Below, one piece after another: positions 1-15,385 of a stretch of 22,472 nt of DNA. Positions within the stretch are counted from its first letter, which is position 1. Each line of letters starts with the position of its first letter. This DNA comes from Polychytrium aggregatum. Taxonomy: Eukaryota > Chytridiomycota > Chytridiomycetes > Polychytriales. Position numbers and translations under genes: made by a program. The notes beneath the pieces were generated by a model. The model searched no databases. It saw nothing but the letters and a program-made list of their open reading frames with translations, and was not told where the DNA came from. The stretch is from assembly GCF_025602895.1 (NCBI RefSeq), contig NW_026516559.1, positions 1 through 22,472 of the forward strand, given 5' to 3'.

Positions 1-222
1 GCGGTTGTAGCGGTCTTGGCTCTGCTGGGCGGTGCGCATCTCGCGCTGGTAGGTGGCCTTGGCCGACTTAATCAGCTCGATCGTCTTGCGCGCAGTGGAC
101 ACGTCATCGCGGAGATTGCTGATCAGGCGTTCGGCGAGCGGCAGAAAGCTGGCGACCGGATCGGCAGCGACAGCAGGAGCAGCAGCAGGTGCGGGGGTGG
201 GGGTGTCTGTGTTCTGGGACAT
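1..222 (-). CDS. N-terminal part of a coiled-coil-type viral protein, open at the left edge
   Basis: An open minus-strand frame runs without a stop from ATG at 222 to the left edge, giving the first 74 residues. The protein starts MSQNTDTPTP, continues with an Ala/Pro-rich tail to about residue 24, and then changes to a charged, heptad-like helix (around LAERLISNLRDDV and later TARKTIELIKSAKATY) that looks like a coiled coil. The upstream DNA has an AT-rich patch at 232-242 (ATATACTATAT), which could be a promoter core. I do not recognise the family. An Ala/Pro tail followed by a coiled coil is common in small giant-virus structural proteins, but that is only an analogy. Plus-strand frames over the same DNA have no such composition and look like shadows. 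Confidence 0.55.
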   Translation of the reverse strand, partial: MSQNTDTPTPAPAAAPAVAADPVASFLPLAERLISNLRDDVSTARKTIELIKSAKATYQREMRTAQQSQDRYNR

Positions 223-256
223 CTTGGCTCGATATACTATATGGGTGAGAAATTCT

Positions 257-502
257 TTATTGCTCTTCAGCGCAGGGGAACAACATGAAAGGGGCGCGGA
301 TCATGTCTACCATGATACGCAAGTATGCGATTTCAAATACATAAGTGCCAGTGCTATGAATCGTAATTTTGGTGTAGCTCTGTGGCGAGTCTGCGGGGGC
401 TGTATAACGGACCGGGTCGTCACAGCTGCCAATATCCTCCACTACCGCCTGCCAGTCCTTAAAGTTCAGCGCAGTAATAGTTAAGTAAGTAAACACTTCC
501 AT
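257..502 (-). CDS. Small unknown protein, 81 aa
   Basis: The frame starts at ATG 502 and encodes 81 residues with alternating hydrophobic and polar stretches (TYLTITALNF, SYTKITIHSTGTYVFEIAY), which suggests a beta-rich fold. Its first 44 bp overlap the end of the 430-aa gene in another frame on the same strand. A stop codon lies just upstream in its own frame, so 502 is the natural start. It ends 35 bp before the next minus-strand gene, which fits a tightly packed run of minus-strand genes. No family is recognised. It could also be the displaced tail of the upstream gene after a frameshift. A homologue carrying both parts in one frame would show that. Confidence 0.45.
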   Translation of the reverse strand: MEVFTYLTITALNFKDWQAVVEDIGSCDDPVRYTAPADSPQSYTKITIHSTGTYVFEIAYLRIMVDMIRAPFMLFPCAEEQ

Positions 503-1751
503 CCTTGCCGACGGTGCTTATGTGCGTTGTGTCCTTGTGACGACCGGTGTTGTAGATTTTTCGGGTAGACGAAAGGCTACCGGACTGATTGACTCGATTG
601 ACACCGTTGGTGAATGGGAGGTAGACGGACAGGGGCAGTGCGTCGGCCGGTACATGCAGACGGGCGTTGAAGGTGAAATCCATGCCCATCGGTTTGAAGC
701 CCGCTGATTCTTCGCAAAGGTACGACTTGCTCTGGGGCGAGGGCTTTGTCTTCCTCTGAATGGACTCTTGTGTCTCGTCAGTATCGATTCCGAACAAACC
801 AAGTACATTGTTGCGCTTGGTTGTGTAAATAGCCATGATACGCCTCTCTAGATCTTCGGTGATCTCGACTTCCGAGAGGACGAACACAAACCGAAGTAGA
901 TTGCGTACTCGATCCAGGACGTAGACCACCCAGGGGAGATTGCATGGCAAAGCAAGCCATTGTACTAGGTCCGTCGTTTGTCGGTCGAGCGTCCCAGCCA
1001 CCGTTGACATCGACAAAACCTTGGCGCAAGCAATAATGGCTGGGTGGTGACGTCGGGCTTGGTCGGAGTACTCGTAGACGAGCTGGTAATCACCGCCCGT
1101 GTTGTAGCCGATCCTATCCAGGTCAACGACATTATCGTCACCGTCGCACAATTCCGGGATGGTATACGAGAGCGCAAACAAGCGTGGGTTGCGCTTGGCT
1201 TCATGGAGGCACTCGAGCACACACAGGAAGCTGACGTAGTTGAATAAGGCGGTGCTAACTCCAGCGAATTGAACTTCATCTACCAATGCTTCGTTCGCAA
1301 TCCGTTCCGTGATGTACCGGGCTGCTATACTTGAGATCGACCAGGAGTGAATGATACCATCTTCATTGCTGAGTGTGGCAGCGGGCGTCTGATCGCTGAT
1401 GATCGTGTGCCACAAGAGGGTACTCGGTGGCTTCGGTGGTGAAGTGAACATCGAGGCGAGCTTTAGGTACCCGGCTTTGCAGCGAGAAATTGTCGTTTTG
1501 CGACTCGATCCACGACCGATGGATCCGGATTGCTTTTTCTTGACCGATCCTTGCTCCCTTCGGGCCGAACGGTTGCACTGAGCTTGTGGCGCCGGAAGCG
1601 CAATGGGTGTCTTGAGACACTCGATCGCCGGAGCGGGGGGCTGTTTTCGTTCTTCGAGTGGCGGTTCCTCAATCAGATCGACGTCTGATTCATCGGATTC
1701 AAGGCCGTTGAACAAATGATAAGTTGAAAAATCCGCTGCCGATATGGTCAT
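459..1751 (-). CDS. Unknown protein, 430 aa
   Basis: A long minus-strand frame from ATG 1751 encodes 430 residues. The first ~110 residues are polar and probably disordered: an acidic stretch (ESDESDVDLIEE) is followed by a Lys/Arg/Ser-rich region with KKKQSGSIGRGSSRK, which could bind nucleic acid or act as a nuclear signal. Residues from ~110 to 340 are more ordered and hydrophobic, with several predicted helices. The tail after ~345 is polar again, then beta-like. I see no catalytic motif and no known family. It overlaps the following 81-aa gene by 44 bp. The even composition across the frame and its length favour a real gene over its many antisense shadows. It is likely viral, judging from its neighbours. 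Confidence 0.6.
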   Translation of the reverse strand: MTISAADFSTYHLFNGLESDESDVDLIEEPPLEERKQPPAPAIECLKTPIALPAPQAQCNRSARREQGSVKKKQSGSIGRGSSRKTTISRCKAGYLKLASMFTSPPKPPSTLLWHTIISDQTPAATLSNEDGIIHSWSISSIAARYITERIANEALVDEVQFAGVSTALFNYVSFLCVLECLHEAKRNPRLFALSYTIPELCDGDDNVVDLDRIGYNTGGDYQLVYEYSDQARRHHPAIIACAKVLSMSTVAGTLDRQTTDLVQWLALPCNLPWVVYVLDRVRNLLRFVFVLSEVEITEDLERRIMAIYTTKRNNVLGLFGIDTDETQESIQRKTKPSPQSKSYLCEESAGFKPMGMDFTFNARLHVPADALPLSVYLPFTNGVNRVNQSGSLSSTRKIYNTGRHKDTTHISTVGKDGSVYLLNYYCAEL

Positions 1752-2021
1752 AATAGTGCGCTGGCGAAGTTTGATCTGGGAGGATGATGGGGTCTGGGGA
1801 GACGACTCCGCTCTTGGGCGGAAGTTTCACGTCGGTGCTGCGCCACCCTTGCAACATCGGGATCAGCTGAGGCCCACGAGAATCATGTAGATCAGAACGA
1901 AGAGATAGACGAGCATGGTTGCGATGGTTGCGTACGACATGCGTGCGAATGTGCTACGTTTGCTGCGTTTGCTGCGATCAGGCCCACATTTTTTCCCCAG
2001 CGCTTGCCATCGATCGCCCAA
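1752..2021. other. Divergent intergenic region, 270 bp
   Basis: This lies between the start of the 430-aa gene (-) and the start of the 184-aa gene (+). It contains a T-run (ATTTTTTCC, about 1988-1996) some 26 nt before ATG 2022, which could serve as the plus-strand promoter core. It also holds a minus-strand mini-frame for a 25-residue hydrophobic peptide (listed separately). Another minus-strand mini-frame of 52 codons (1699-1857) overlaps the 430-aa gene and is not called. Confidence 0.4.
1863..1940 (-). CDS. Possible 25-aa single-span membrane peptide
   Basis: ATG at 1940 opens a 25-codon frame ending in TGA. After MSYAT the peptide is almost purely hydrophobic (roughly residues 6-24, including MLVYLFVLIYMILVGL), which is about one membrane span. 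NCLDVs do encode very short membrane proteins of the inner virion membrane, so this is plausible, but a frame this short may occur by chance. It stands alone in the gap between two divergent genes. Confidence 0.28.
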   Translation of the reverse strand: MSYATIATMLVYLFVLIYMILVGLS

Positions 2022-2576
2022 ATGAATACCAAGATCCAGCCGAGCCGCCCCGTCCTGGGTATCCCGCCTCGAACGACATCCGAATGGATCGATACCCCGC
2101 CTCCAAAGCAGAGGGAACGCAATTACTTTATTTGCGTCGAGTCCATCAAGCGTGCACCTGTCTATCCGTCTCCGGCAGAGTATCGCTTCCCGATCCTCCA
2201 GCCCTTGCGCGATGTCATTCGTGTCGAGCTCGTTGGAGGGACCTTGCCGTCGACACCGGCCACGACGCCGCCCTATGTCATCCTTGATGTTAATGAGCTG
2301 AACCACATGGATGTCGGCAGTGCAAACGGTGCCTTCAATGTGCTCTTTACCGCCCCCGGAGCCGGCTCGTCCACCCACAGCATCGTGCAGACGCAAATGA
2401 CCCAGACAACGACACTGATCTGCCAGCCGTCCATCCCCAGACTCAATTACCTGTCGATCGCCTTGCGTGCCCCCGACGGCACTCTCATGGACTATGGCAC
2501 CGGCTTTGATCCGTCAAACCAGCACATGCTCATGTTCAAGTTCACGGTCTTGGAGGCCTTTGGGCAGCTACCTTAA
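2022..2576 (+). CDS. NCLDV virion-type beta protein, 184 aa
   Basis: The frame encodes a protein with the layout of a virion-associated family common in giant and large algal viruses. After an unstructured start comes a segment FICVESIKRAP with YPSPAEYRFPI, then VIRVELVGGTLPS, then PPYVILDVNELNHM, and near the end PRLNYLSIALRAPDGT followed by MLMFKFTVLE. The order 'Tyr-Pro-x-Pro-x-x-Tyr, ...V..iELv, ...Yi.L.i.El, ...L..l.i...d..G..yd' is what I recall for that family. The function is unknown, with virion assembly or base structure inferred. An upstream TTG at 2004 is in frame, but ATG 2022 is the better start: it lies 26 nt after a T-run. Its stop overlaps the stop of the convergent thioredoxin-like gene. 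Confidence 0.65.
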   Translation: MNTKIQPSRPVLGIPPRTTSEWIDTPPPKQRERNYFICVESIKRAPVYPSPAEYRFPILQPLRDVIRVELVGGTLPSTPATTPPYVILDVNELNHMDVGSANGAFNVLFTAPGAGSSTHSIVQTQMTQTTTLICQPSIPRLNYLSIALRAPDGTLMDYGTGFDPSNQHMLMFKFTVLEAFGQLP

Positions 2577-2983
2577 GGGAGAAGCGTGAGTGTCTGCTGA
2601 ATGGCAGAAGCAGTGCGTGGGTTAGTGGGACTGTACGGATACAAGAGTCCCTTGGAATCGACCACAAAGAGCGTCGGGAACCCGTTGACACCCAGGATCT
2701 CTGAAATCTGCCGTTGCTTCACACCGTCAAAGTGAAAGACCGGGAAGGGTGCATTGCGAAGCTCCTTGGCAAGCCGGTGGCAGTGGCCGCATGTCGTCAT
2801 ATATGCGACCACCAGGGCCTTGCGACCCAGAGCACGCCTGAATCGTACCGGAGTCCCTGGCTGCATTCCGAAATCAAGATCGACCCGCGGCTCGATCGGC
2901 TGTCCAAAGGTCGTGAATACGTCTTCATTGTGCCGCTTGTGCTTCAGAGGCGGCAGTGGGCTGAATGGTGCAAACTCGATCAT
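2573..2983 (-). CDS. Thioredoxin-fold thiol oxidoreductase (CGHC), 136 aa
   Basis: The protein has a CGHC active site at residues 65-68 (hydrophobic strand ALVVAYMTT just before it) and the thioredoxin cis-proline at P103 in GFPTLFVVDS. These are the two hallmarks of the fold. CGHC is the pair seen in protein disulfide isomerases, so oxidation or isomerisation of disulfides is the likely activity. The first ~40 residues are a Pro-rich extension with no clear signal peptide, so it probably works in the cytosol or inside the virion, as other NCLDV thiol enzymes do. A minus-strand shared promoter with the fibre gene lies just upstream. The stop TAA overlaps the neighbouring stop in the palindrome CTTAAG. 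The enzyme could serve disulfides in the capsid or fibre, but this is inference. Confidence 0.8.
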   Translation of the reverse strand: MIEFAPFSPLPPLKHKRHNEDVFTTFGQPIEPRVDLDFGMQPGTPVRFRRALGRKALVVAYMTTCGHCHRLAKELRNAPFPVFHFDGVKQRQISEILGVNGFPTLFVVDSKGLLYPYSPTNPRTASAIQQTLTLLP

Positions 2984-3002
2984 TGCTGTCTTCTACATCA
3001 AT

Positions 3003-3012
3003 AAAAATTTTT
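3003..3012. promoter_or_regulatory. Palindromic AT core of a divergent promoter
   Basis: AAAAATTTTT is a perfect 10-bp palindrome midway between two divergent starts: 19 nt from ATG 2983 (-) and 25 nt from ATG 3038 (+). The symmetry and short spacing suggest a two-way viral promoter. There is no experimental support. Confidence 0.45.
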
Positions 3013-3037
3013 GTTGGACCCAGGTCATGGGAACGGA

Positions 3038-4765
3038 ATGAGCAACATCCGCGCAAACGTCATCGTCTCTGAGGCATCCACCCTCGAGATCTATAGCGAC
3101 CGTGTGCTTTGCCAGGCCGTCTCGCTCTCAAGCACCGCAACCAATGCACTCTACACCATCGGCGGCATCCAGTGCGGGGCCAGCGTGTCCGTTGCCACCT
3201 CCGTTCAGACACCGGCTCTCTCGTCACCTACCAGCGACTTGTCCTTGAACGGAACCACCCTCCAGGTCCTTTGCCCGCAAACGAATCAACAGGGCCTCAG
3301 CGTCGAGGGGAACCTGGCATGTGGTTCTGAGCTCTCGGTTGGCTCGGTATTCTCGGTCTCGGCTGCAAACGGGCTGGCTTGCTCGGCTGATGCGGCTTTC
3401 ACCGGAGCACTCTCGGCCGGTGACGTCTCAGCGTCGACCATAGACCTGTCCACTTCGCTATCTGCACCGAGCGTCACAGCCACTTCGTTGAGCGCTTCCT
3501 CGGCTACAGTGTCGTCCTTGAGCTGCACCACCATCAGCGTCAGCAGCGGCATCACTATCGACACTCTCAGTCTCACCAATGCCAGCTTTGAAAACCTCAC
3601 GACCACGGTGTCTACGAACCTGGTGGACGTTTCGGTCGACACTCTTGCTGCTTCGTCGTCCGTGTCGATCGGGTCCGGTGGCAGCTTCTCTTGTGCTGGC
3701 AGCACCAGCTTGGCAAGCGCATCGGTCTCGGCGACATTGACCGCTTCGGCTGTGAGCGTCTCTGGCACTCTCTCGGCGTCCACCGTCGATGCCGGGTCTG
3801 TTAGTTGCTCGGGTTCGGTCACGGCCACATCGTCCGTCGGTGCACCGGTCTTGACCGCATCCACGTCCATCGGCGCTCCTTCGGCATCCATCACCTCGCT
3901 CTCTGCCTCGTCGGTCTCTGCGGCTGACGTCACCGCCACCGACACCATCACGTGCCCGAGCCTCACTGTCAGCTCGGCGCTCTCGTCGACCGGGACGGCC
4001 GAGTTTGCGGGTCTCGGCGTGAGCACCTCTGCCTCGATTGCGACCCTGTCGGCCACCACTCTCACTGCGACGGCTGCAACGATCACCAACGCCAGCGTCT
4101 CGTCCGTGCTGACGGCAAATACCTTGGACTACACCGCCCTCAGCTCGGCATCCACCCAGATCTCGGCCAGCACCTCAATCCTCTCGGCTGGATGCGATTC
4201 CCTTCGGCTCGTGTCGCTTGCCAGCCCATCCACCACGACAAGTCGCAACCTGGCCCTCTTCACCCTGGGGGCGTCCTATTCAGACAGCGACTTTGAGTGC
4301 TGCCAGCTGGCATCCGAGTCGACCGACATGTACGTGCTGAGCTCGCGGGCGATGGGTGCCGGGCAGGTCCGCTCTGTCGGTGTGCGGGCAGGCACATCCG
4401 TGAGCCAGCCGCAGATCCTCGTCGACCCCTCGCTCATCACTCTCTCCTGCGACGTCAACGTCATGGGCGAGCTCTCGACTTCGTCGGATATCCGTCTCAA
4501 GACCGACATTGTCGATTACAACGTCCAAATGTACAACACCGCCCACAAGCTGCTCGACCTCGACATGATCGAGTACGTCCACACCAGAGATCCCGATGGA
4601 CCGCGCCGGGTGGGTCTTATTGCCCAGCAGGTGCAGGAGCACTTTCCGCAATTCGTGAAGCAGGACCGGGACGGCTTTCTCGCCGTGCAGTATGATCATA
4701 TGGTGCTGCCGCTCATGGCGTTGCTCAAGCGGGTGTGCGCCCAGATCGGGCTCGAGAATATCTAG
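3038..4765 (+). CDS. Fibre-like protein with C-terminal S74 chaperone domain, 575 aa
   Basis: Residues ~30-440 are an irregular array of short Ser/Ala/Thr/Val-rich repeats of the type 'SxSxSSVSxxxLTAxTLxA', with almost no charge, as expected for a beta-helical or trimeric fibre shaft. The last ~93 residues match the peptidase S74 intramolecular chaperone: SSDIRLKTDI at 482-491, then a helix, EYVHTRDPDG..RVGLIAQQVQEHFP, and a final helical stretch (YDHMVLPLMALLKRV). In phage tail spikes this domain drives trimer folding and cuts itself off next to the conserved Ser-Asp, here S483-D484. Giant viruses also carry S74 proteins. A surface fibre or attachment role is therefore likely. ATG 3038 is chosen because the frame upstream offers only a TTG at 3011. 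The CDK-like kinase follows after 20 bp. Confidence 0.82.
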   Translation: MSNIRANVIVSEASTLEIYSDRVLCQAVSLSSTATNALYTIGGIQCGASVSVATSVQTPALSSPTSDLSLNGTTLQVLCPQTNQQGLSVEGNLACGSELSVGSVFSVSAANGLACSADAAFTGALSAGDVSASTIDLSTSLSAPSVTATSLSASSATVSSLSCTTISVSSGITIDTLSLTNASFENLTTTVSTNLVDVSVDTLAASSSVSIGSGGSFSCAGSTSLASASVSATLTASAVSVSGTLSASTVDAGSVSCSGSVTATSSVGAPVLTASTSIGAPSASITSLSASSVSAADVTATDTITCPSLTVSSALSSTGTAEFAGLGVSTSASIATLSATTLTATAATITNASVSSVLTANTLDYTALSSASTQISASTSILSAGCDSLRLVSLASPSTTTSRNLALFTLGASYSDSDFECCQLASESTDMYVLSSRAMGAGQVRSVGVRAGTSVSQPQILVDPSLITLSCDVNVMGELSTSSDIRLKTDIVDYNVQMYNTAHKLLDLDMIEYVHTRDPDGPRRVGLIAQQVQEHFPQFVKQDRDGFLAVQYDHMVLPLMALLKRVCAQIGLENI

Positions 4766-4785
4766 GTCTCTGGGCGAGGTGAACC

Positions 4786-5706
4786 ATGGTCGTCGTTAAG
4801 GATTACACCGTCCATATCAACCAGAGGCTCGGCAAGGGGTCGTATGGGACCGTCTATCGCGGATCCAAGAACGGCAAGACGTATGCGCTCAAGAAGACCA
4901 CGATGGAGAAACCCGGGGAGCTCTCTGCCACGCTCATCAGGGAGATTGCCATTCTCAAGCGCCTTGCGGGCCACCCTAACATTGTGCAGCTGGAGGAGTT
5001 CTTCTTTGCTGACAACCTCAAGTTCACTTGGCTGGTCTTTGAGGAATACAAGACCACGCTGGACGCCCTCATCAAGAGCAAGGACGACGGGCTCTCCATG
5101 GACGAGACCTTCAAGTTCTCGTCCAATCTTATCGACGGACTCGTTTATATGGAGGAACAAGGGTGTATTCACCGGGATCTGAAGCCGGGCAACATTCTCG
5201 TTCACGCGGACGGGCACTGTGTCATTGCCGACTTTGGACTCGCCCGCATGGATCGCACCCGCTACAATATCAAGCAGGACACATCCGTCGTGACGCTCTG
5301 GTACCGCGCACCCGAGATTCTGCTGGGGTGTATCGATTATACTCTGCAGGCGGATATGTGGAGTCTGGGATGTATTGTCTTTGAAATGTTCTTTGGGCAG
5401 CCTCTCATATCCACCAAGACAGGCCACGAACAACTCAGCGTCATCTTGACCATCATCGGCTCGGTCCCGCTCAAGACCTACAGTCTCAAGATCCCCACCA
5501 AGACCAGCGACCCGAACAGCGCAGCCTGGTATATGCACCTCGAGGGCAAACCCAATGGCATGTATCACCATCTGCGCAACGTCTTTGTCAAGGAGGAACA
5601 GCGGCACTGGGTCTGCAAGATGCTCGAGCTGGATCCAGCTCAGCGAGCAAGGCCAAGGGAATCAAAGGATGAATTGCTGGCCCTGATGCGCGCACAGCTC
5701 CTCTGA
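4786..5706 (+). CDS. CDK-like serine/threonine protein kinase, 306 aa
   Basis: All kinase landmarks are present: glycine loop GKGSYGTVY (16-24), lysine K36 in ALKK, helix-C glutamate E53 in SATLIREI (compare PSTAIRE), HRDLKPGN (129-136), DFG (149-151), VVTLWYRAPEILLG (168-181) and DMWSLGC. The length is that of a bare CDK. By alignment from memory with CDK2, the residue at the activating threonine position is D165, which could mimic phosphorylation. The Wee1-type tyrosine is kept (Y20). No cyclin is visible nearby. It lies 20 bp after the fibre gene; GAATATCT at 4755-4762 could be its promoter core. Its last 67 bp overlap the Nudix gene on the other strand. CDK-like kinases occur in several giant viruses and may alter the host cell cycle or transcription. 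That role is inferred. Confidence 0.9.
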   Translation: MVVVKDYTVHINQRLGKGSYGTVYRGSKNGKTYALKKTTMEKPGELSATLIREIAILKRLAGHPNIVQLEEFFFADNLKFTWLVFEEYKTTLDALIKSKDDGLSMDETFKFSSNLIDGLVYMEEQGCIHRDLKPGNILVHADGHCVIADFGLARMDRTRYNIKQDTSVVTLWYRAPEILLGCIDYTLQADMWSLGCIVFEMFFGQPLISTKTGHEQLSVILTIIGSVPLKTYSLKIPTKTSDPNSAAWYMHLEGKPNGMYHHLRNVFVKEEQRHWVCKMLELDPAQRARPRESKDELLALMRAQLL

Positions 5707-6617
5707 TGGCGCACCAGCTTTTCATGGATCCGACCAAGCACCCGCTTCTTCTCAATGTCATATGGACGCAACAACCGCATGCACTGCTCAAAGGTGTACC
5801 AGCCCACCTGCTTGACTTCTCCAGCTTGGTGCAAATTGGAGAAATTCATTTCCCAGTCCGCCTCCCCTTTCATCTCGGCGAGGTAGTATACGTGCTTGTA
5901 TTGGATGTCGTTGGTGCCCTTGAACTCTTCAATATACGTGTCTCTGTTGTTCAATCGCAGCTGGCTGTGCGGATACCCAGTCTCCTCCGTATATTCGCGC
6001 AATGCGGCATTCAGTGTGCTCTCGCGGACATTGCGCCGTCCCTTGGGGAAGCCAAACTCGGTGTGCGGCCATGTGCAGTGCGTGTGCTTGATGTAGTAGT
6101 GCTTGTCGACGCTGGTGTACTTGGCCTTGGCTTCGTCGTAGTCCATGGTGTAGCATGGATTCTTGTGGTTCACCCAGAGCCGGTTCCAGATCTCGTCAAA
6201 GGACTCGTGGAGCAGCCGGTGTCTCTCTTGACAGGTCATCTCGCCAAAGAGCGTCATGAGCTGGGGTGTGCTGTAGATGCCGCGGATAAAGTCGATGTAG
6301 GCGTGCGTGTCCTTCCGCTGGATCATGCAGTAGACGAGATCGCCGTCGCGCGGGGCAATCAGCGTCTGGGATCGTGTGTTGATGAAGCTGTTGTGGACGT
6401 CGCAGTCATACGGTGTCCCGGGTACTGTCGATATCTGGTCGCCGGCGCGGAACCGCCGGTATGCAATGATCCCGTAGCTCGTCACCGGGAGCGTGCAGTC
6501 CCGGTACATGTGCCCGATCATCCCGCAATTCACACATCTGAAGTTGGCATAACCTCCGTTTCGTCGTCGGATTCTCCTGGTCGTCATTCTGCGACAAACG
6601 CGCACAAAGCTTTCCAT
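5640..6617 (-). CDS. Zinc-knuckle Nudix hydrolase, NCLDV mRNA-decapping type, 325 aa
   Basis: Residues 193-215 fit the Nudix box GX5EX7REUXEEXGU exactly, with G193, E199, R207-E208, E211-E212 and G214, so the metal-binding catalytic core is intact. Residues 28-41 are a CX2CX4HX4C zinc knuckle (C28, C31, H36, C41), which suggests RNA binding. Between them are SYGIIAYRR and YCMIQRKDTHAYIDFIRG, and a helical part with a WNRLW motif. This layout resembles the viral decapping enzymes (poxvirus D9/D10, ASFV g5R, mimivirus L375 types), which remove the mRNA cap to speed mRNA turnover. I infer that function. The first 20 residues are basic; M11 is an alternative start. The 3' end overlaps the kinase gene by 67 bp. 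Confidence 0.87.
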   Translation of the reverse strand: MESFVRVCRRMTTRRIRRRNGGYANFRCVNCGMIGHMYRDCTLPVTSYGIIAYRRFRAGDQISTVPGTPYDCDVHNSFINTRSQTLIAPRDGDLVYCMIQRKDTHAYIDFIRGIYSTPQLMTLFGEMTCQERHRLLHESFDEIWNRLWVNHKNPCYTMDYDEAKAKYTSVDKHYYIKHTHCTWPHTEFGFPKGRRNVRESTLNAALREYTEETGYPHSQLRLNNRDTYIEEFKGTNDIQYKHVYYLAEMKGEADWEMNFSNLHQAGEVKQVGWYTFEQCMRLLRPYDIEKKRVLGRIHEKLVRHQRSCARIRASNSSFDSLGLAR

Positions 6618-6697
6618 ATCCCCAGGATTTTTTGTTATGATTCGAGCACACTGGGTTTTTTTCTTGATAACAACCAGAACGAGACTAACCCGTCATC
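6618..6697. promoter_or_regulatory. Divergent promoter region with inverted repeat
   Basis: This 80-bp gap separates the Nudix start (-) from the 622-aa gene start (+). It holds two T-runs (6628-6633 and 6655-6662) and an inverted repeat, TTGTTAT at 6632-6638 and ATAACAA at 6667-6673, one arm facing each gene. It is AT-rich compared with its flanks. It is probably a two-way viral promoter; no motif is proven. Confidence 0.4.
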
Positions 6698-8566
6698 ATG
6701 GAAACATCGGAATCCGAGACCACCGGAAACATGGGTGCGATCATCAATCTTCCTCAGCGCGTTTTGCAAATCCCAGAGCTCTCCATCGAGATCCTCTCCA
6801 ATTTTGCAGACAATCCCGCGTCAATCAGACGAACCATTCAATCGAGCTCGGTTTTGTATCGCTTCTTCAGTAGCGATAATGGCTCCAATATGCTGGCGCG
6901 GAGGTTGTTTGCAAAGAGGTATCCTACAATTCAGTTTCCAACCCAGGTGTACGACATGGCCCAAAGACTCACACTCAAGGATTACGAAGACTTTCATTGC
7001 CTGTTTGATACGCTGTTGACCGAGATCGGTGACCTCAAAGCACCTCACGAGCGATTCCCTAGAACAATGAACGCAGCTGGGAAGCTGGTTGATGTATTCT
7101 GCTTCAGACTGAAGGAATTTATCGACTACGAACATACACTTACCAATCTGTTGGCTACTAAGGCCATATATAACAACTCTCATTATCTTAGATGGGAGAG
7201 CATCGAACACATTCTGAGATACGTTTATACAGTCCACTTTCCATGGAGAGTGAAACTCAACTCACCATTGGAGCCCCAAATTGTTCTTCCAGACGAAATA
7301 ATTGATGAGGGTACTGATGAAGAATTCGACGACTACCCACCAGCTCGCGGTTATATCACCCCTCGTATCGCAGATAATGCAGCATGTCATTTTGCAAAAT
7401 TATTTAACACAAATGGTGCGTATTCGAACAATTTCATCATGGCCCTATTCCAATACAACCATTTCATTCGATACACATGGCCTCTTCGCATACTTTACAT
7501 TGCCTGTCAAATCAGAAGAATTCTACAACGACCCATCGAGACTCCTGGAAGACAAACCATTCTGGAGTTATTTGAAAGAAATGGAATTGACCACCGCAGG
7601 ACGGGCCTCAGTGCGTATGATTACTTCCGAATAACTCTTCCACTCGAATACCAAAGGATCAAACTCGTCAATGGACGTATGGTAAGCACCACTGACTCAC
7701 CAGTGGAATATTGGCTGGCTATGCGAGAGAAGATCTTTTGGGGCTCACGTATCTACCATAGCAGAGTGGAAACCACATTGGACAAAGACATAGATTCATC
7801 GTTCATCGCAGGTGTTCAACTGGACAATGAAATGTCCGCCAAAAGTTTTTTGTTCAGACTATTCGACACGCGTGTGGTGAGTTCGATCAATGATCCCATA
7901 AATCTTGACGTCATCAATACCTTTTTCCATACACAGCCCTATTCATCACTTGGTTCTATGTTCAAATCGCCGTGGGGGTTATGGATGTCACCTTCCAACG
8001 GAACCATCTCCGGCAATCAACCAACTGAAGAAAGTGCATCGCGGCTGCGAGAGGACCGGAGAGACTTCTTATCGAGGATCCCTGACACAATGCTGAAAAC
8101 CTATCACACATATGCACCTTACATCATCCTCACAATGGTAGAACGCCGGAATGTTTACGAAAATTTGACATTGAAAGCAAGGGAACGGTCGTATATTGAC
8201 TTGGAGGAGTTTCGGGCCACTCTGGACAATAAATTGGTAATGAGTTCAAACCGCCAACCACTTCAATTGACAGAGCTACTTCGTAAAGAGCCCTTGTATT
8301 CTGTTGCTGCGCCGTTCAATGCTTTGTGGTATTGTAAGGACCCTACGCTTCGTAATCAATACACCGAAATGTTTTGCGAAAATATGAAACGGCTAAAAGT
8401 GTTCTGGAACAGTACACATCCGTCCATGGGGTTTCCTGATTTTGACCAAGAGCATTGGAAGCTTGATCCCGAGTACCACACTTACCAATCTGACGATGAC
8501 GATTCCCAAACTGAAACCTCAAACTCAGACACAGACGATATCCAGAATACCACATACACACAATGA
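6698..8566 (+). CDS. Unknown protein, 622 aa, with a weak F-box-like N-terminus
   Basis: An uninterrupted frame from ATG 6698 encodes 622 residues. Residues ~18-58 (LPQRVLQIPELSIEILSNF, then SIRRTIQSSSVLYRFFSS) resemble the start of an F-box: a Leu-Pro entry, an Ile-Leu-rich helix and a Ser-rich second helix. If this is correct, the protein could recruit substrates to a host SCF ubiquitin ligase, as F-box proteins of other large DNA viruses do. The remaining ~560 residues are mixed helical, rich in Tyr, Arg and Phe, with no repeat or motif I recognise. The last ~25 residues are acidic (SDDDDSQTETSNSDTDD). Codon use is visibly more A/T-rich than in the flanking capsid, fibre and kinase genes, which may mean a separate origin. 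It ends 7 bp before the convergent capsid gene. Confidence 0.65.
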   Translation: METSESETTGNMGAIINLPQRVLQIPELSIEILSNFADNPASIRRTIQSSSVLYRFFSSDNGSNMLARRLFAKRYPTIQFPTQVYDMAQRLTLKDYEDFHCLFDTLLTEIGDLKAPHERFPRTMNAAGKLVDVFCFRLKEFIDYEHTLTNLLATKAIYNNSHYLRWESIEHILRYVYTVHFPWRVKLNSPLEPQIVLPDEIIDEGTDEEFDDYPPARGYITPRIADNAACHFAKLFNTNGAYSNNFIMALFQYNHFIRYTWPLRILYIACQIRRILQRPIETPGRQTILELFERNGIDHRRTGLSAYDYFRITLPLEYQRIKLVNGRMVSTTDSPVEYWLAMREKIFWGSRIYHSRVETTLDKDIDSSFIAGVQLDNEMSAKSFLFRLFDTRVVSSINDPINLDVINTFFHTQPYSSLGSMFKSPWGLWMSPSNGTISGNQPTEESASRLREDRRDFLSRIPDTMLKTYHTYAPYIILTMVERRNVYENLTLKARERSYIDLEEFRATLDNKLVMSSNRQPLQLTELLRKEPLYSVAAPFNALWYCKDPTLRNQYTEMFCENMKRLKVFWNSTHPSMGFPDFDQEHWKLDPEYHTYQSDDDDSQTETSNSDTDDIQNTTYTQ

Positions 8567-8573
8567 AACCCCT

Positions 8574-9665
8574 TCAGCTCATGAAATCCAACCAGCTGAT
8601 TCCATCGGCACTCTGCAGAAGAGTGGCCTCGATGCCCATAAAGTAGAGCTGGTACAGCCCGTTCGTGGCGGTATTGGTGATGTTGAAGAGCAGTGCGACT
8701 TCGTCAAAGGCCCCGCAATCCAAGGCATCTTCTGCTCCGAAATCGAAGCAGTAGATTCCGCGTGTACCGTCAAAGTCTGCATAGCCCGTCTTGATGCGGG
8801 GGAAGATCTCTGGCAGCTGGTAGAATCGGGGCTTGCCGTCCAGGGTCAGTGTGACGCTGGTGAAGAGACCCGTTGCCTCTGGATTAAACTTCCAGAGCAG
8901 CTTGCGGATCACCGACCGGAACGGGAGTACCACCTTGAATGACCCCGGTGAGACCGGTACGTCATAGTAGACCCAGGTGTTGAGCAGCTGAGTCTTTTGC
9001 ACATCCGGGTCATTCACTGGTGCCGTCGGCCACATGCGATACTTGAAGAAGACGGCGGCATCCTGGAAGACTGCGGTTTGTGCGGGAATCGGTGGGTCTG
9101 TCGATGTGTGTGGAGTCGGTGCCGGTCCCAGCACTCCAGATGCGGCGGTTGCCCATATCACACGGAACTTGAGCTGCATCGCCTGTACATCCGCAAAGAG
9201 GAACGGTGCATGGGGTGCTCTGATGAGAAAGCTTTGGGTGGTGGCTTGCGGGAGACTGAAATCACACAGTGGCTGGTAAAGCGTGAATCCGTCGGGAACT
9301 CGCCCGGCTGCAAGCTCATCCGCATAGTTCGTCGGCTCCAATGCCGAAACCGCTTCGAGCCACATGCCCGTCCACTGGTACAGGCGCATCGAGCCGACCC
9401 ACATCTCGATCGAGTCGATTGCCCCGAACCCAGCTGCATTGGCAAAGCCACCGACGTTAACCTCGATCGTGAAATACAGCCATGTCTCCTCGAGCTGATC
9501 ACCCAGCCAGGGAACGACCGCGGTCGATGTCTTGCCAAAGTCGGTCACTTCCTGGAACTCGACTCGTGAGATGTTAATGCCGCTCTTGGGTTGCCCCTGG
9601 AAGAGCGCTCGCTCTTGCGGGCCGTATGTCGTGAGCTGCGTGAGTGCGGTTGCATTCGTCGACAT
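8574..9665 (-). CDS. MCP: Divergent NCLDV major capsid protein (double jelly-roll), 363 aa
   Basis: Both ends follow the NCLDV capsid pattern. The start ALTQLTTYGPQERALFQGQP matches the usual 'L.qLvayGaqD.yLtgnP', followed by VTDFGKTSTAVVPWLGDQLE (compare 'dFGkkv...I.r.GDLi') and IDSIEMWVGSMRLYQWTG (compare 'i..vei.iGgq.id'). The end GIYCFDFGAEDALDCGAFDE parallels 'yyFSlnPed.qPSGtlNfS', and FMGIEATLLQSADGISWLDF parallels 'yNvLrisnGmggl.f'. At 363 residues it is shorter than the usual 440-600, and the Pro-Ser-Gly core is changed to DCG. It may therefore be a minor or paralogous capsid protein. Start 9665 is chosen because the longer frame to 9815 would run over the neighbouring gene and the homology begins here. 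It shares a palindromic promoter with the next gene. Confidence 0.82.
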   Translation of the reverse strand: MSTNATALTQLTTYGPQERALFQGQPKSGINISRVEFQEVTDFGKTSTAVVPWLGDQLEETWLYFTIEVNVGGFANAAGFGAIDSIEMWVGSMRLYQWTGMWLEAVSALEPTNYADELAAGRVPDGFTLYQPLCDFSLPQATTQSFLIRAPHAPFLFADVQAMQLKFRVIWATAASGVLGPAPTPHTSTDPPIPAQTAVFQDAAVFFKYRMWPTAPVNDPDVQKTQLLNTWVYYDVPVSPGSFKVVLPFRSVIRKLLWKFNPEATGLFTSVTLTLDGKPRFYQLPEIFPRIKTGYADFDGTRGIYCFDFGAEDALDCGAFDEVALLFNITNTATNGLYQLYFMGIEATLLQSADGISWLDFMS

Positions 9666-9691
9666 TGTGGGTTCTTGGTGAGGGGTAGATA

Positions 9692-9699
9692 GAATATTC
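9692..9699. promoter_or_regulatory. Palindromic core of a divergent promoter
   Basis: GAATATTC is a perfect 8-bp palindrome between two divergent starts: 26 nt from ATG 9665 (-) and 21 nt from ATG 9721 (+). The spacing is close to that of the AAAAATTTTT core at 3003-3012, and a near copy (GAATATCT) lies at 4755-4762 before the kinase. This spacing is why 9721 is preferred as the start of the plus-strand gene. Confidence 0.4.
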
Positions 9700-9720
9700 G
9701 GGCTGGGTCTCGTGCGTCTG

Positions 9721-10134
9721 ATGGAGGCAAGAAATGTTCTTGGCCTAGAGAAGATCACAGCCATGCCCCCGCTCCACAACGTCGACATCACCAACGATAA
9801 TGCCTTCCAGCTCATTGCTCAGTATATTGAGATTGCTCAGTCCAAGGGTGCTTACAAGCTGAACGATGCATTCCAGCTCAAGAAGGCGCTCGATGCCTGT
9901 GTCAGCGCCAAGTACGAGCCATTCGGAGAGAACGACCGCAACCCACGAGAGACGGCCAAGCGTATCCTGCTTCAGGGCATCTTTGTCGGACAGAACAAGG
10001 GCGCCTTTACGATCTCAGACTCGGTGCTCCTCGCCGATCTCATCCAGTTTACTGAGCTGGACGGTGGAGAGCTATTCGGTTCAACCAGCCATGGTCACGG
10101 AAAGCAAGTCTCAAAGCACAAGGAGAGGGAGTAG
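9721..10134 (+). CDS. Small NCLDV-type protein with an internal duplication, 137 aa
   Basis: The protein contains two related helix-loop-helix units: IEIAQSKGAYKLNDAFQLKK (about residues 35-54) and IFVGQNKGAFTISDSVLLAD (about 84-103). Shared positions are the Gln, the Lys-Gly-Ala with an aromatic, the acidic residue four to five places later, and the hydrophobic pattern. The single 'AQ.kGay...da..l..ai' unit is common in small giant-virus and phage proteins of unknown function, as far as I recall. The tail is basic and His/Lys-rich. ATG 9721 fits the shared promoter spacing; ATG 9763 (MPPLHNVD, 123 aa) is an alternative. The capsid gene starts divergently 55 bp away. It is the last gene I assign to the viral block. 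Confidence 0.65.
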   Translation: MEARNVLGLEKITAMPPLHNVDITNDNAFQLIAQYIEIAQSKGAYKLNDAFQLKKALDACVSAKYEPFGENDRNPRETAKRILLQGIFVGQNKGAFTISDSVLLADLIQFTELDGGELFGSTSHGHGKQVSKHKERE

Positions 10135-10484
10135 CTCCACCATCAAGAGAAAACGAGACCGATCCTTTCTGTTTTGCCTCGACATGATCAAGTCCAAGAG
10201 CGAAATGAGGACTTGGTGCATTGGGCTGGGAGGTCGACGCGATCACATGACCAAGGGGGTCAGGGTGGAGATGGCATGTTTCCTCCGCCCGCCGTGCCGC
10301 CGTGCGCGGCGATCCCAAGTCCAGCGGGGGATGAAGAGCAGAGATCGCCGCACCAGGGCGGCCCTGGCGAGGGACAACCATGTCTCCCAGGATGCCGAGA
10401 CTGGTGGTATAAATGGTCGCCCTCGGGGCAGAGGAGCGAGATCAGCATCGACCCAGCTCCAGCCTCAGCTTCCTGCGTTCGACC
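10135..10484. other. 350-bp non-coding region, candidate virus/host junction
   Basis: This stretch lies between the last virus-type gene and the first intron-bearing gene. Frames that cross it have shadow-like composition (Arg/Ser or Pro-rich). Its left part continues the style of the viral block. A GC-rich part at about 10280-10380 is followed by a TATA box. No inverted or direct repeat that would mark an integration site stands out by eye. Confidence 0.4.
10408..10414 (+). promoter_or_regulatory. TATA box (TATAAAT)
   Basis: TATAAAT lies 70 bp before ATG 10485, leaving room for a transcription start ~30 bp downstream and a short leader. The start codon context is gaccATGG, a good eukaryotic one. 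This is a classical RNA polymerase II promoter layout, unlike the short AT cores of the viral block. Confidence 0.55.
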
Positions 10485-12728
10485 ATGGCTACTCCCTTTG
10501 CTCCCCCCGCTATCCAAGCTACCCCTACTACGCCTGCTGCCCTTCCAGGTGTAGTTGTCCCAGCTGCCAGGCCTCCCGACTCTCCAATCCCCGACGTTTC
10601 CCTCAGCGACGTTCCCTTTGGTAGAAACAGCGTCACGATCGTGAAGACGCATCAGCGCTCTACTCACTGGGCGATGACGTTCGAAATGATCAATTCCGAT
10701 TTTCGCCGGTCTGCCCTCAAGCAGATCACCTTTCCAGTGTTCACTGGATTTATTTGGTGTACCGAGTACATCCAGATCGCCCGTGTTTATATTTTTTTGA
10801 TTCTGAAGTGCTTCCAGCACTATTTTGCCCCGATTGTTGCCGTTTTTCCCAATCTCTCTTATCTTCGCACCTTCGTTGCTACCCTCTTGAAGAAGAACAA
10901 GAAAATCCATGGCGCTGGTGACATCACTCCTTCCAATTGCCACAGGTTTGATCTTTTTGCCAATGTCTCTGACTTTGAGGCATTTTATTTGGTTTTCTGC
11001 GCTATCGTACACCCTTCGAACCCAATTGAGCAGAATCGCATCCAACAGTCCTTCGTGAATCACACTGTGGGCAAATATCGTTCCGTTGGCCCCTTCTGTT
11101 CTGCTGTAGGAATGGCGTTTTGTCTGGATTTGCGTAGGAAAGTTACCCCTTTCACCATTCCAATGTATCCATTGATTGTTTCCCCTTTTACTTGGTTTGT
11201 TCCTACCTTTTCCACGTTTGTATCCGCCTTTGTGAATGTCCCCAATGGATTCAGGGTGCTGTGCAGTGTCAATGCTTTGATGTACCGTTTCGCAATCCCC
11301 CCTGCTGTTGCTCAAACCACCCCACAGCCCATCCTCACCACCACCAACGACCACGCTTACGACAGCGACTCTGAGTACGTTCCCTCGGACACTGATTCAG
11401 CAAGCTCCTTCTGCTCTTCCGAGTCCGCCGAGTCCTCCAGCTCCACCGAGGTCGATGAACCCGCCGATTCGGTCGCTTCTGCCGAGTCCATGCAGCTGAT
11501 CGACGACGAATACACCGTCGTCGACGAAGGCGTTGTTCCAGTTCAAGCCAGCATGCCCTCCAAGAATGCGGCGGCCTTTGAACACCCCAAGACCCCGACT
11601 CCTGCTGGCATCAGCGGTCCTCGCTTGATGCTCGTCGATGGCTTGGCCACTCCAATCACGCCAGCGGCCAAGAGCAACGACAAGATCAATGTCGCCCCGG
11701 TTCTTGCGACTCCCGATCCCCAGCCTGTGCCTGTGGTCGCGGCCGTTGTCGAGACAGTGATCGCTACTCCAAAGCCCGTTGTCCCTGGTGAGTGCTGCAC
11801 GAACATAGCTGTTTTTCGCTCGACTGAGGACTGACGCTGATTCTTCTTTGCCACAGCACCTCCTGTTGAGCCCGCAACTCCCGATGGAGCGGCTGTCGTC
11901 TCGCTCAAGAGAGATTTCGCCGCGATGAAGGCTGTGCCTATCGGATGCTACGAATTCATGACACCAATCAGGGACACTGTGCTTGCCTCAGGCAATGACA
12001 TGTCCGAATTCATGGCATGGTCCAAGGACATTGCCACAATCGACAGCAAGAATCGAGAAATCGAGAGCCAGAACAAGCAGTTCAGCTTGGATGCCTATAA
12101 GACTGTACTTGAGTGCATCAAGGGTGTCGAGGACAAGACCACCGCTTTTGGAATCCTGGACAGAGCTGAAGCCTTCATTTACGGCTCAAAGCGAACCAAG
12201 CTCAGCGACCCCGAGGACACCCAGCCAAGCCCTTCCACTCGCCCCACCACTCCCACTCCTCCATCCGCGGCCGTTGGGGTCGAGGAGCTTCCCGATGAGC
12301 AGCCAGCCGAGCATTTGTCCTTCCAGAAGCTCGACATCGAAGGTCTCAAGGCCGCTTTTGCTACTCCTGTCGACAACACCCCCGGTAACTTCAAAACCAT
12401 TCCTGAGTTGATTGCGGGTGTTGATGAGTTTCGGGCGTTTTTCGATGGTATCACTCCCCAGCATAGAATGCTCTACTCGATGGACCGCTTGACCGATATG
12501 GTGATTGATTGGTTTGATGGTATAGTTGAAGATTATGGTCTCCATGATAACTTTCTTAGCAACTGGCGGGTGATCGAGTGTAAATCTTCGAAAATTTTCC
12601 CCACCTCCTATTATGCGCCTTTGCATCCTTTCATTCTCGTGCTGGTTGGTTTGTATGTTTTCAAGAGAGGGACGATTTTGACTTGGACCGAAATGCGTGG
12701 GGCCTTCTCCACTCGTGTTGCATTTTGA
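10485..12728 (+). CDS. Two-exon eukaryotic gene of unknown function, 724 aa after splicing
   Basis: Exon 1 is 10485-11787 and exon 2 is 11857-12728. Joining them gives 725 in-frame codons including the stop, with the codon split after its first base. The protein starts with a Pro/Ala/Thr-rich segment (1-50), then a Phe-rich, partly hydrophobic region (~65-290; stretches such as RVYIFLILKCFQHYF and LIVSPFTWFVPTFSTFVSAF). A Ser/Glu/Asp-rich acidic linker (~300-360) and Pro-rich linkers to ~450 follow, then a helical charged part (SKDIATIDSKNREIESQNKQ), another Pro/Thr linker and a C-terminal domain ending in a hydrophobic stretch (PFILVLVGLYVFKRG). I recognise no family. Third codon positions are mostly C or T on this strand, supporting real coding over the 364-aa antisense frame. 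It is probably a host gene, though a virus-derived gene that gained an intron cannot be excluded. Confidence 0.65.
11788..11856 (+). other. Spliceosomal intron, 69 bp
   Basis: The intron starts GTGAGT and ends CCACAG. It holds two perfect fungal-type branch sites, CTGAC at 11831-11835 and CTGAT at 11837-11841, 15-25 nt before the 3' end, with a pyrimidine-rich stretch between. Read through, it hits a stop (TGA at 11832-11834). Removed, the two frames join exactly. The length is typical of fungi. Confidence 0.75.
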
Positions 12729-12790
12729 GTATTTATGAAATACAAATGTGGAGCGCTCGTTGGCGACTCTGTGATTTGATACGTTGCAGG

Positions 12791-13035
12791 GCTGTGGTAG
12801 TTTTGTCTGGGGCACCCATCGGCGACTCGTTCCTCTGTGGCGAGGCTGTGGTAGTTTTGTCTGGGGCACCCATCGGCGACTCTTTCCTCTGTGGCGAGGC
12901 TGTGGTAGTTTTGTCTGGGGCACCCATCGGCGACTCGTTCCTCTGTGGCGAGGCTGTGGTAGTTTTGTCTGGGGCACCCATCGGCGACTCTTTCTTCTGT
13001 GGCGAGGCTGTGGTAGTTTTGTCTGGGGCACCCAT
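12791..13035 (+). repeat. 54-bp minisatellite, 4.5 units, cut by an LTR
   Basis: Units start at 12791, 12845, 12899 and 12953, and a partial fifth covers 13007-13035. Each reads gctgtggtagttttgtctgg and so on for 54 bp. Units 1 and 3 have ...gactcgttcc, units 2 and 4 have ...gactctttc, so a 108-bp higher-order unit is visible. Because 54 is a multiple of three, both strands stay open, which gives false long frames. The array breaks at the first base of LTR 1. The 62 bp between the gene's stop and the array contains a short hairpin (GTATTT-atg-AAATAC, 12729-12743) right after the stop and nothing else I can name. Confidence 0.9.
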
Positions 13036-13040
13036 TGTTA

Positions 13041-13184
13041 GAGTCCGAAGGGGACTCAACGGCAAAAGAAGAAGTGAGCTCGAAGTGAGCTCAGGGAAGG
13101 CAAGGGTAAAGTCCGAAGTGGACTCGGAGAGGGAGCGAGGGAAGCAAAGATCCGTTCAAGATAAGACTAGTCTCGAAATGAGAC
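13041..13184 (-). other. Array of four 5-nt-loop hairpins in U5
   Basis: Four inverted repeats lie in a row: GAGTCC-GAAGG-GGACTC (13041-13057), TGAGCTC-GAAGT-GAGCTCA (13075-13093), AGTCC-GAAGT-GGACT (13110-13124) and GTCTC-GAAAT-GAGAC (13170-13184). All loops are 5 nt and read GAA on this strand. The same array is in LTR 2 (14586-14729) and LTR 3 (18981-19124). In element RNA they lie in the leader, just before the expected primer-binding site. Confidence 0.6.
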
Positions 13185-13274
13185 GTGAGGAACACTCAGA
13201 GAATAAAGTAGAAGGCACTTTATTTAGTCCTATTTTGAACGCTGAGGTTCGACTACACATCGCGGGGGTCAGGC

Positions 13275-13282
13275 TATTTATA
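13275..13282 (-). promoter_or_regulatory. LTR 1 TATA box, with downstream AATAAA
   Basis: On the minus strand it reads TATAAATA. AATAAA follows 50 nt downstream at 13219-13224, as expected for the U3/R promoter and the R-region polyadenylation signal of an LTR element. Confidence 0.6.
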
Positions 13283-13826
13283 GACAAGTCCGGACTTGGC
13301 AGCGAAGGGCGGCCAAGGGAGGGAAAAGTGGGCGATCGAGCAGGGCGAAGGGGGCGATGCACGAACGAGGGCCGAGAAGGACCACCGAGACAGGCAGAGA
13401 ACCAAAGCGAGGGAGGCGCAAGCAAAAGCGAAGCACCTGGCAGGAGAAACGTGCAAAGGCGAAGCAATGTGACTCAACGTCCAAGAAGCGGATTGGTCAA
13501 GTATAAGGTTGGGGCAAATGCATGCGAGATGAACAAGAGATCGGGGCGGTCAGGCAGGTCATGAGTCACCGGTGGTGGGACACATGACCGGCAGCCGAAT
13601 TGCAACCAATCGCAGCAAGGCGCGTGCACAAACAAACCGGCGCGTGCGAAGAAGACAAAGGAAGCGGAGCAGCGCGGGGAAACGGAAGTGCGGAAGGAGC
13701 GGAAATGGCAGGCAAAAGGCGGAAAATTGGAGGGGAACTGCAAAGCTACACACAAACAAACAGAAAGGCAAAAGAACAGCCAAGTGTGCAGTCAAAGTGG
13801 AGAACAAGCAGAAGCTATCCCTAACA

Positions 13827-13840
13827 TCATCCCCTTCCTT
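13827..13840 (-). other. Polypurine tract, copy 1
   Basis: On the minus strand it reads AAGGAAGGGGATGA, directly before the LTR. It primes plus-strand DNA synthesis in Ty3-type elements. It overlaps the pol stop codon (13839-13841). Confidence 0.7.
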
Positions 13841-14580
13841 AGCGACGAACTCCGGGCGTCGCCTTCGGCTTTGAGGGATAGCGAAGGTGGAAGTCAGCAA
13901 CAAGATCAGTGGCGTGGGAAACATTGGCAGCGGGCTCCCAAGACCGGTCAGTCTCGGAATAGCCCTTCCACTGAACCAAGTACTGTAAGCGACCACGGAA
14001 GAGCCGAGAATCGAGAACAGTCTCGACCTCAAACTCTTCCTGGGAGTCAACAAGAATGGGTGGAGGTTCGGGTTGGGTGAACTCGGGAACAATGTCCTTC
14101 GTTCGGGGTTCAAGGAGGGATACATGAAAGACGGGGTGGACTTTGAGTGTGGAAGGGAGTTTAAGTTCAAAGGCAACGGGGTTGATGCGGCGAAGAACTT
14201 TAAAGGGGCCAAGCTTTTTCTGATCAAGCTTGTTGGAGGGACGAAGGGTGCGGATGTGGCGACGATCAAGAAAAACGAGGTCGCCAACGGAGATGTCGGG
14301 AGTGGGGAGACGGGATTTGTTGGCCTGCAAAGTGTAGGACTCTTGGGCAACCCGGAGGTTGGCCTTGAGATCCTCGAGAACGGTCTGAAGTCGGTCGACA
14401 CGTTCTTCGGCAGAGGGCACAACAGAAGGATCACGGATGATGGAGGGATCAAAAATGGGGTGATGGCCATGGACTGCAAAGAAGGGAGTCATGCCAGTGG
14501 AGGTGTTTTCCGAGTTGTTGTAAGTGAACTCGGCAAGGGGAAGGTGAAGGGTCCAGTCGTCTTGCAGGTAATTGCAATGG
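13839..14580 (-). pseudogene. pol: Pol C-terminal fragment, copy 1: end of integrase plus chromodomain
   Basis: The fragment holds about 247 residues of the Ty3 polyprotein, starting at ...IHCNYLQDDW, just after the integrase catalytic glutamate, so all three DDE residues are missing here. It keeps LPLAEFTYNNSENTSTGMTP, the integrase C-terminal part (GDLVFLDRRHIRTLRPSNKL, LGPFKVLRRI, HPVFHVSLLEP) and a chromodomain with the aromatic pattern YLVQWKGYSETDRSWEP. Chromodomains let chromoviruses target marked chromatin. The frame itself has no stop and is broken only by copy 2. The protein sequence is the same as the matching part of copies 2 and 3. Confidence 0.9.
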
Positions 14581-15371: not shown

Positions 15372-15385
15372 TCATCCCCTTCCTT
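15372..15385 (-). other. Polypurine tract, copy 2
   Basis: AAGGAAGGGGATGA on the minus strand, directly before LTR 2 and overlapping the pol stop codon. Confidence 0.7.

What the first reader, a model, noticed from the sequence alone, without database searches (positions are those of the whole stretch)
1..13826. Giant-virus gene block next to an intron-bearing gene and an LTR retrotransposon: likely endogenous giant virus in a fungal-type genome
Positions 1-10134 hold a capsid protein, S74 fibre, decapping-type Nudix, CDK-like kinase and thiol oxidoreductase without introns, packed on both strands. Within 350 bp the style changes to a TATA box, a 69-bp GT-AG intron with CTGAC branch site, a minisatellite and chromovirus copies. 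Such elements live in eukaryotic chromosomes, so the viral block is best read as integrated. Giant-virus insertions in fungi have been described only for a few lineages.
Basis: partly seen in the sequence, partly recalled or inferred. Interest (0 to 1): 0.88.

Follow-up and report, generated by a model that had tools for sequence, protein, structure and literature searches.

The report
Giant virus copies in chytrid genome
This DNA from a chytrid fungus holds part of a giant virus that is present in several nearly identical copies in the fungal assembly, some interrupted by the fungus's own jumping genes; it adds one more fungus to the few known to carry giant-virus DNA.

Summary
The window is the whole 22.5-kb contig C287 of a 64.7-Mb assembly; matching protein records name the chytrid Polychytrium aggregatum. 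Positions 1-10134 are a compact giant-virus block: SWIB, S74 fibre, CDK-like kinase, decapping-type Nudix, thioredoxin-like protein and a divergent capsid-like protein. On contig C5 (170 kb) part of this block lies with a true NCLDV major capsid gene and a B-family DNA polymerase; contig C96 holds VLTF3 and an A32-type ATPase. Endogenisation is supported by two full LTR retrotransposons, each with identical LTRs and a 5-bp target duplication, inside the capsid-like gene and the intron gene of the C196 copy, while the window (both) and C350 show uninterrupted sites; by several copies with different insertions; and by the window's LTR recurring identically on megabase contigs. The step at 10135-10484 recurs in three contigs, so it is not a one-contig chimera, but it is not shown to be the integration boundary. 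No viral DNA was seen running into undoubted single-copy host genes, so non-integrated virus is not fully excluded. Capsid and polymerase trees both pair it with Quaeritorhiza and group it with Allomyces. New member of a known kind.

The parts
1..222 (-). 5' part of a SWIB-domain gene cut by the contig end
   Evidence: Translation equals the start of the C5:167179-167901 ORF, which matches SWIB, E 6.8e-14
459..1751 (-). 430-aa ORF without Pfam match; variable between copies
2004..2576 (+). 190-aa ORF, weak DUF5901 match
   Evidence: PF19254 E 2.1e-4, 20.8 bits, under the cut-off of 26.4
2573..2983 (-). thioredoxin-like protein with CGHC motif
   Evidence: PF13098 E 1.9e-5, just under the cut-off
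3038..4765 (+). fibre-like protein with C-terminal S74 domain
   Evidence: PF13884 E 3.8e-9; start at 3038 is my choice
4786..5706 (+). CDK-like protein kinase
   Evidence: PF00069 E 3.5e-52; best solved matches are cdc2/CDK proteins
5640..6617 (-). Nudix hydrolase of decapping type with a CCHC knuckle-like motif
   Evidence: PF00293 E 7.1e-10; zf-CCHC weak, under cut-off; g5R E 2.2e-10
6698..8566 (+). 622-aa ORF in a 45% GC stretch, present in C196, absent from C350
8574..9665 (-). divergent MCP-like (capsid variant) protein, 363 aa
   Evidence: interrupted by an LTR element in C196
9763..10134 (+). small ORF without known relatives
   Evidence: start at 9763 is my choice
10173..10314 (+). 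stretch upstream of the intron gene, 88% identical to sequence in contigs C5 and C58
10485..12728 (+). two-exon gene (10485-11787, 11857-12728; intron 11788-11856); family members on large contigs
12790..13035 (.). 54-bp minisatellite, 4.6 copies
13036..22472 (-). chromovirus array: LTRs 13036-13826, 14581-15371, 18976-19766; pol pieces 13839-14492, 15384-18890, 19779-22301

Best explanation
The window is one of several copies of part of a giant virus (Nucleocytoviricota) in the genome of the chytrid Polychytrium aggregatum. A virus with its own capsid and DNA polymerase, and probably packaging ATPase, late transcription factor and RNA polymerase, infected the fungus and its DNA became part of the genome (inferred; how it was joined is unknown). 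The copies then recombined with one another or came from slightly different viruses, giving mosaic patches (mosaic shown, cause inferred). Host LTR retrotransposons inserted into them (shown), and some copies have broken frames in the assembly (shown; sequencing error not excluded). The intron gene at 10485-12728 is either fast-evolving host sequence caught in the duplicated unit or a gene the virus had taken up; the evidence does not decide.
For: Host: the capsid-like ORF, the MCP and PolB all hit protein records named P. aggregatum, on contigs as long as C196, C63 and C189. Hallmarks: MCP PF04451 on C5, C63 and C326, E 2.4e-50 to 4.5e-50, 0 of 14 control genomes; PolB on C5 and C189; VLTF3 on C96, 0 of 14 controls; A32 on C96, 2 of 14 controls match too. 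Link: C5 holds MCP at 19 kb, PolB at 158-161 kb and window 1-2691 at 167.7-170.4 kb. Copies: most of 1-12298 on C196 and of 1-13035 on C350, 1-2691 on C5, 1-624 on C189. Elements: of six full E1/E2 copies examined, five have perfect 5-bp target duplications; the two in C196 lie in the capsid-like gene and at the intron gene, with 100% identical LTRs of 309 and 419 bp, and the window and C350 are uninterrupted there. The window's chromovirus LTR has 40 full-length matches at 100% (40 of 623 candidates scored), among them contigs C112, C13, C24 and C2, each over 1 Mb, and a pair at C5:116022-122425.
Against: Contigs are short and end in repeats. Reads and coverage were not available. One of six elements (C265) lacks a target duplication, so some joins may be recombinant or mis-assembled. 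C96 is tied to this virus by gene content only, and the Rpb1 family matches all 14 control genomes. Capsid-like identity of the window ORF rests on a 44% profile probability.
Confidence: 0.85

Rival explanations
1. Free or episomal virus: the sequenced culture carried a replicating giant virus that was assembled with the host, and its DNA picked up retrotransposons without entering a chromosome.
For: No direct junction with undoubted host genes was seen; the ORFs of the window block are largely open; copies are mostly over 99% identical.
Against: At least three LTR elements with target duplications or paired identical LTRs lie on viral contigs: two in C196, one at C5:151185-156651, plus an LTR pair at C5:116022-122425; copies differ in insertions and frames.
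Confidence: 0.1
2. Chimeric contig: viral and fungal sequence were joined by the assembler.
For: The contig is short, ends in repeats, and one related contig (C265) carries an element without a target duplication.
Against: Three contigs are colinear across 10135-10484.
Confidence: 0.03
3. The intron-bearing gene belongs to the virus (captured cargo), so the whole of 1-12730 is viral and the real boundary lies elsewhere. This is a rival on one detail, not on the main reading.
For: It sits at the same place in the three full copies; the 142 bp upstream of it recur in C5 and C58 upstream of another ORF.
Against: It has a spliceosomal-type intron and relatives at 33-40% identity on C2 (1.07 Mb), C366 (331 kb), C72 and C122.
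Confidence: 0.45

Closest known systems
NCLDV genes in Gonapodya prolifera and Allomyces macrogynus (Gallot-Lavallee and Blanc 2017, PMC5294986; passages seen)
   Same: NCLDV core genes in zoosporic fungi; the passages name an MCP and DNA polymerase in Gonapodya and a D5 primase-helicase in Allomyces, marked as Phycodnaviridae-like
   Different: Those are described as small islands amid eukaryotic genes; here a 170-kb contig, several copies, and retrotransposons inserted with target duplications
1.5-Mb endogenous giant virus region of Rhizophagus irregularis (PMC10640383; passages seen)
   Same: Endogenous giant virus in a fungus
   Different: Described as homologous to Asfarviridae and shown by 259 long reads joining virus and host; here the MCP's best solved matches are not the B646L capsid, and no reads were available
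MCP and PolB genes in Allomyces javanicus, Catenaria anguillulae, Quaeritorhiza haematococci and Blyttiomyces helicus records
   Same: The only organism-named relatives among the 120 capsid rows listed; Quaeritorhiza pairs with Polychytrium in both trees
   Different: Their surroundings were not read here; a search for papers naming at least three of these genera or marker terms gave nothing on viruses in its 4 papers
Solved capsids 8h2i MCPv1 and 3kk5 (Chlorella virus PBCV-1, recalled)
   Same: Best solved-structure matches of the MCP, E 9.8e-99 and 1.3e-84
   Different: An RNA polymerase large-subunit gene lies on C96; PBCV-1 is recalled to lack one

Membership tests
Nucleocytoviricota | Double jelly-roll major capsid protein | tested here: met
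   PF04451 on C5, C63, C326, E 2.4e-50 to 4.5e-50, 0 of 14 controls
Nucleocytoviricota | Family B DNA polymerase of viral type | tested here: met
   PF00136 E 7e-105; groups with fungal-record and environmental rows; best solved match is cellular polymerase delta
Nucleocytoviricota | VLTF3-type late transcription factor | tested here: met
   PF04947 E 4.0e-46 on C96, 0 of 14 controls
Nucleocytoviricota | A32-type packaging ATPase | tested here: met
   PF04665 27.7 bits against cut-off 22.8, on C96; 2 of 14 controls also match
Nucleocytoviricota | D5 primase-helicase | tested here: inconclusive
   13 places, none on a contig tied to the virus; 3 of 14 controls match
Nucleocytoviricota | Own RNA polymerase subunits | tested here: inconclusive
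   Rpb1 match on C96, about 24 kb from VLTF3, E 1.4e-57, in two pieces; other matches on five further contigs and 14 of 14 controls
Giant endogenous viral element | Many viral genes in a row in a host assembly | tested here: met
   C5 and the window
Giant endogenous viral element | Host mobile elements in viral DNA, with target duplications and uninterrupted sites elsewhere | tested here: met
   C196 E1 and E2
Giant endogenous viral element | Sequence joining virus to undoubted host genes | tested here: inconclusive
   The intron gene has relatives on large contigs, but a boundary was not shown; reads not held
Asfarviridae | MCP nearest the asfarvirus capsid | tested here: not met
   B646L E 3.9e-7 against 9.8e-99 for 8h2i MCPv1; only the Nudix is nearest g5R
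Phycodnaviridae | Placement inside the family in a tree with named references | not testable with these tools
   No named algal-virus sequence set was held apart from solved structures
Chromovirus (Ty3/gypsy) | RT, RNase H, integrase and C-terminal chromodomain between LTRs | tested here: met
   Domains; LTRs

The most novel reading that the evidence does not exclude
[quoted passage not shown] In Polychytrium it endogenised recently and more than once, so that the copies exchange variable genes while host LTR elements break them up.
Probability: 0.5. Interest if true: 0.8.

Novelty: new member of a known kind. Interest (0 to 1): 0.58.

Why it matters
Large DNA viruses of fungi are known almost only from fragments in genomes. 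A chytrid with at least one 170-kb viral contig and several copies gives a second, independent hint (two marker genes) that one giant-virus lineage is linked to zoosporic fungi. The insertions with uninterrupted sites in other copies give an order of events: copies first, retrotransposons later. That makes it testable how such copies enter, recombine and decay in a fungal genome.

Tried and rejected
Relatives of the window's own viral proteins in viral contigs: single-protein scans with the capsid-like ORF, the 9712-10131 ORF, the Nudix and the MCP, and one with the MCP alignment, gave no confirmed locus (5 of 8 scans used). The patterns were narrow, so this is weak evidence of absence. NCBIfam gave nothing useful for the viral ORFs; matches of the kinase and Nudix were far below the curated cut-offs. 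Structure prediction of the capsid-like ORF never ran: the machine was busy at each of eight attempts. Reading the capsid ORF as the main MCP was rejected. Reading C5:157911-158387 as Erv1-like rests on its look only; Pfam gave no match. dN/dS values that involve the C196 copy of ORF 459-1751 were dropped because its frame is broken. A telomere-repeat check on the loci held found none.
Full report
What the window is. It is the complete contig C287 (22,472 bp) of a 64.68-Mb, 418-contig assembly. The capsid-like ORF, the major capsid gene and the DNA polymerase of this assembly each match a protein record named Polychytrium aggregatum, on contigs of 34,142, 91,312 and 36,002 bp, the lengths of C196, C63 and C189. 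The host is therefore taken to be this chytrid.

The viral block. Positions 1-10134 are densely coding on both strands without visible introns (93% in my gene choice). Pfam supports S74, kinase and Nudix; the thioredoxin and DUF5901 matches are under the curated cut-offs. The Nudix is nearest the solved decapping protein g5R (E 2.2e-10; g5R as an African swine fever virus protein is recalled). The window starts inside a SWIB-domain gene whose full form is on C5. The capsid-like ORF is the weak point: no Pfam hit, one solved match at E 0.14 to a capsid variant, and a profile match to 18 MCPs with P 2.4e-4 but a probability of only 44%; four control proteins gave P 0.22 to 0.40.

It belongs to a giant virus. 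The same assembly holds true NCLDV major capsid genes on C5, C63 and C326 (0 of 14 control genomes), a family B DNA polymerase on C5 and C189, VLTF3 on C96 (0 of 14 controls), an A32-type ATPase on C96 (2 of 14 controls match) and an RNA polymerase large-subunit match on C96 about 24 kb from VLTF3 (14 of 14 controls match the family, so its viral nature rests on the neighbourhood). C5 carries the capsid gene at 19 kb, the polymerase at 158-161 kb and window 1-2691 at its end, so the window's block and the hallmark genes belong together. Further C5 ORFs match RNase III, SWIB, polysaccharide pyruvyl transferase and glutaredoxin; C5:1-10000 holds LRR and Sel1 ORFs.

Copies. Window sequence recurs on C350 (1-6642 and 8573-13035), C196 (1-8773, 8761-11859, 11852-12298), C5 (1-2691) and C189 (1-624). 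C63:1-9000 matches C5:67700-76454 at 98%, with two pieces on C174 set 6,403 bp apart and overlapping by 6 bp in the query; 6,404 bp is the length of a full chromovirus (5,613 + 791), so an insertion there is inferred, not read. Identity is mostly 99-100%, with patches: 3-10% difference in 501-1750 and up to 24% in 11001-11250. In 1-2691 the window is like C196 in one stretch while C196 is like C350 and C5 in another, so the copies are mosaics. In these patches dS/dN is 0.112/0.058 (window and C350), 0.138/0.072 (window and C5), 0.060/0.038 (C350 and C5) for ORF 459-1751 and 0.131/0.053 for exon 1 (window and C196): the variants diverged under some constraint. In C350 the S74 and kinase frames are broken; sequencing error is not excluded.

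Retrotransposons. C196 carries E1 (5,467 bp, LTRs 309 bp, identical) in the capsid-like gene, flanked by GTCAA, and E2 (about 6.08 kb, LTRs 419 bp, identical) at the 3' end of the intron, flanked by AGCAC; the window and C350 are uninterrupted at both. E1 at C5:151185-156651 (CAGAC) and two E1 copies on C189 (TAAAG, nested in a chromovirus; ATTTA) have target duplications too; E2 on C265 does not: five of six. The window's chromovirus LTR has 40 matches at 100% and two pieces at 98% in the 40 of 623 candidates scored, many on large contigs and one pair on C5:116022-122425. In the window the LTR spacings are 1,545 and 4,395, shorter than the 5,613 of several other pairs, so its units are internally deleted.

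The junction. The intron gene (724 aa) has relatives at 33-40% on C2 (1.07 Mb), C366, C72 and C122, at 63% on C196 and C265, and 100% on C350. Three contigs run from the viral block into it. But the 142 bp upstream recur at 88% on C5 and C58, so the gene may be viral cargo. I do not call 10135 the integration boundary.

Relatives. Of the 120 capsid rows listed (8,000 scored), 8 carry an organism name, all zoosporic fungi: Polychytrium, Allomyces (2), Catenaria, Quaeritorhiza (2), Blyttiomyces (2). In a tree of 119 of these 120 rows (one shorter than 350 aa dropped) the 8 lie in one group of 39 rows (support 100); Polychytrium pairs with Quaeritorhiza (93); the fungal rows need three changes, so they are not a group of their own. 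In a polymerase tree of 71 rows (of 113 that passed the length filter) the 4 fungal rows lie with 7 environmental ones (support 100) and the pair has 98; the program warns of long branches, Polychytrium's among them, and 30 of 500 shuffles are as clustered. Roots are midpoints.

Literature. Passages were seen of PMC5294986, PMC10640383, PMC9894930 and PMC8371127. The first names NCLDV genes in Gonapodya, Allomyces and Rhizophagus; the second a 1.5-Mb region in Rhizophagus. The paper of Gong and others (2020), cited there, is not held. The five held papers that name Polychytrium aggregatum show no virus topic in title or abstract start (listing only). The library lacks most subscription papers and preprints.

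Verdict. An endogenous giant virus in a chytrid is the best reading (0.85). It is a new member of a known kind; a lineage of giant viruses of zoosporic fungi is a bolder reading that the data allow.

Noticed in passing
6643-8572: A 1.9-kb stretch of 45% GC with a 622-aa ORF is present in the window and C196 and absent from C350, without a target duplication seen.
   Followed up: partly
501-1750 and 10751-11500: Variable patches between otherwise 99-100% identical copies, with mosaic exchange between copies.
   Followed up: partly
L046-L055 (C374, C101, C182, C193, C206 and others): D5_N helicase ORFs, five with the same score, lie on other contigs, some large: perhaps another mobile element such as a polinton-like virus (identity of the element not tested).
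   Followed up: partly
10173-10314: A 142-bp stretch upstream of the intron gene recurs at 88% upstream of a 388-aa ORF on C5 and C58.
   Followed up: partly
L032, L033 (C63, C326): A DDE_3 transposase ORF sits next to the major capsid gene on C63 and, with broken frame, C326, but not in the C5 stretch read; a similar ORF is on C58.
   Followed up: no
L043 (C63:8894-9832): A WD40-repeat gene at the end of a viral stretch matches many other contigs, so host-type repeat genes border viral sequence there.
   Followed up: no
13036-22472: The chromovirus array consists of internally deleted units sharing LTRs (spacings 1545 and 4395; full pairs elsewhere 5613).
   Followed up: partly
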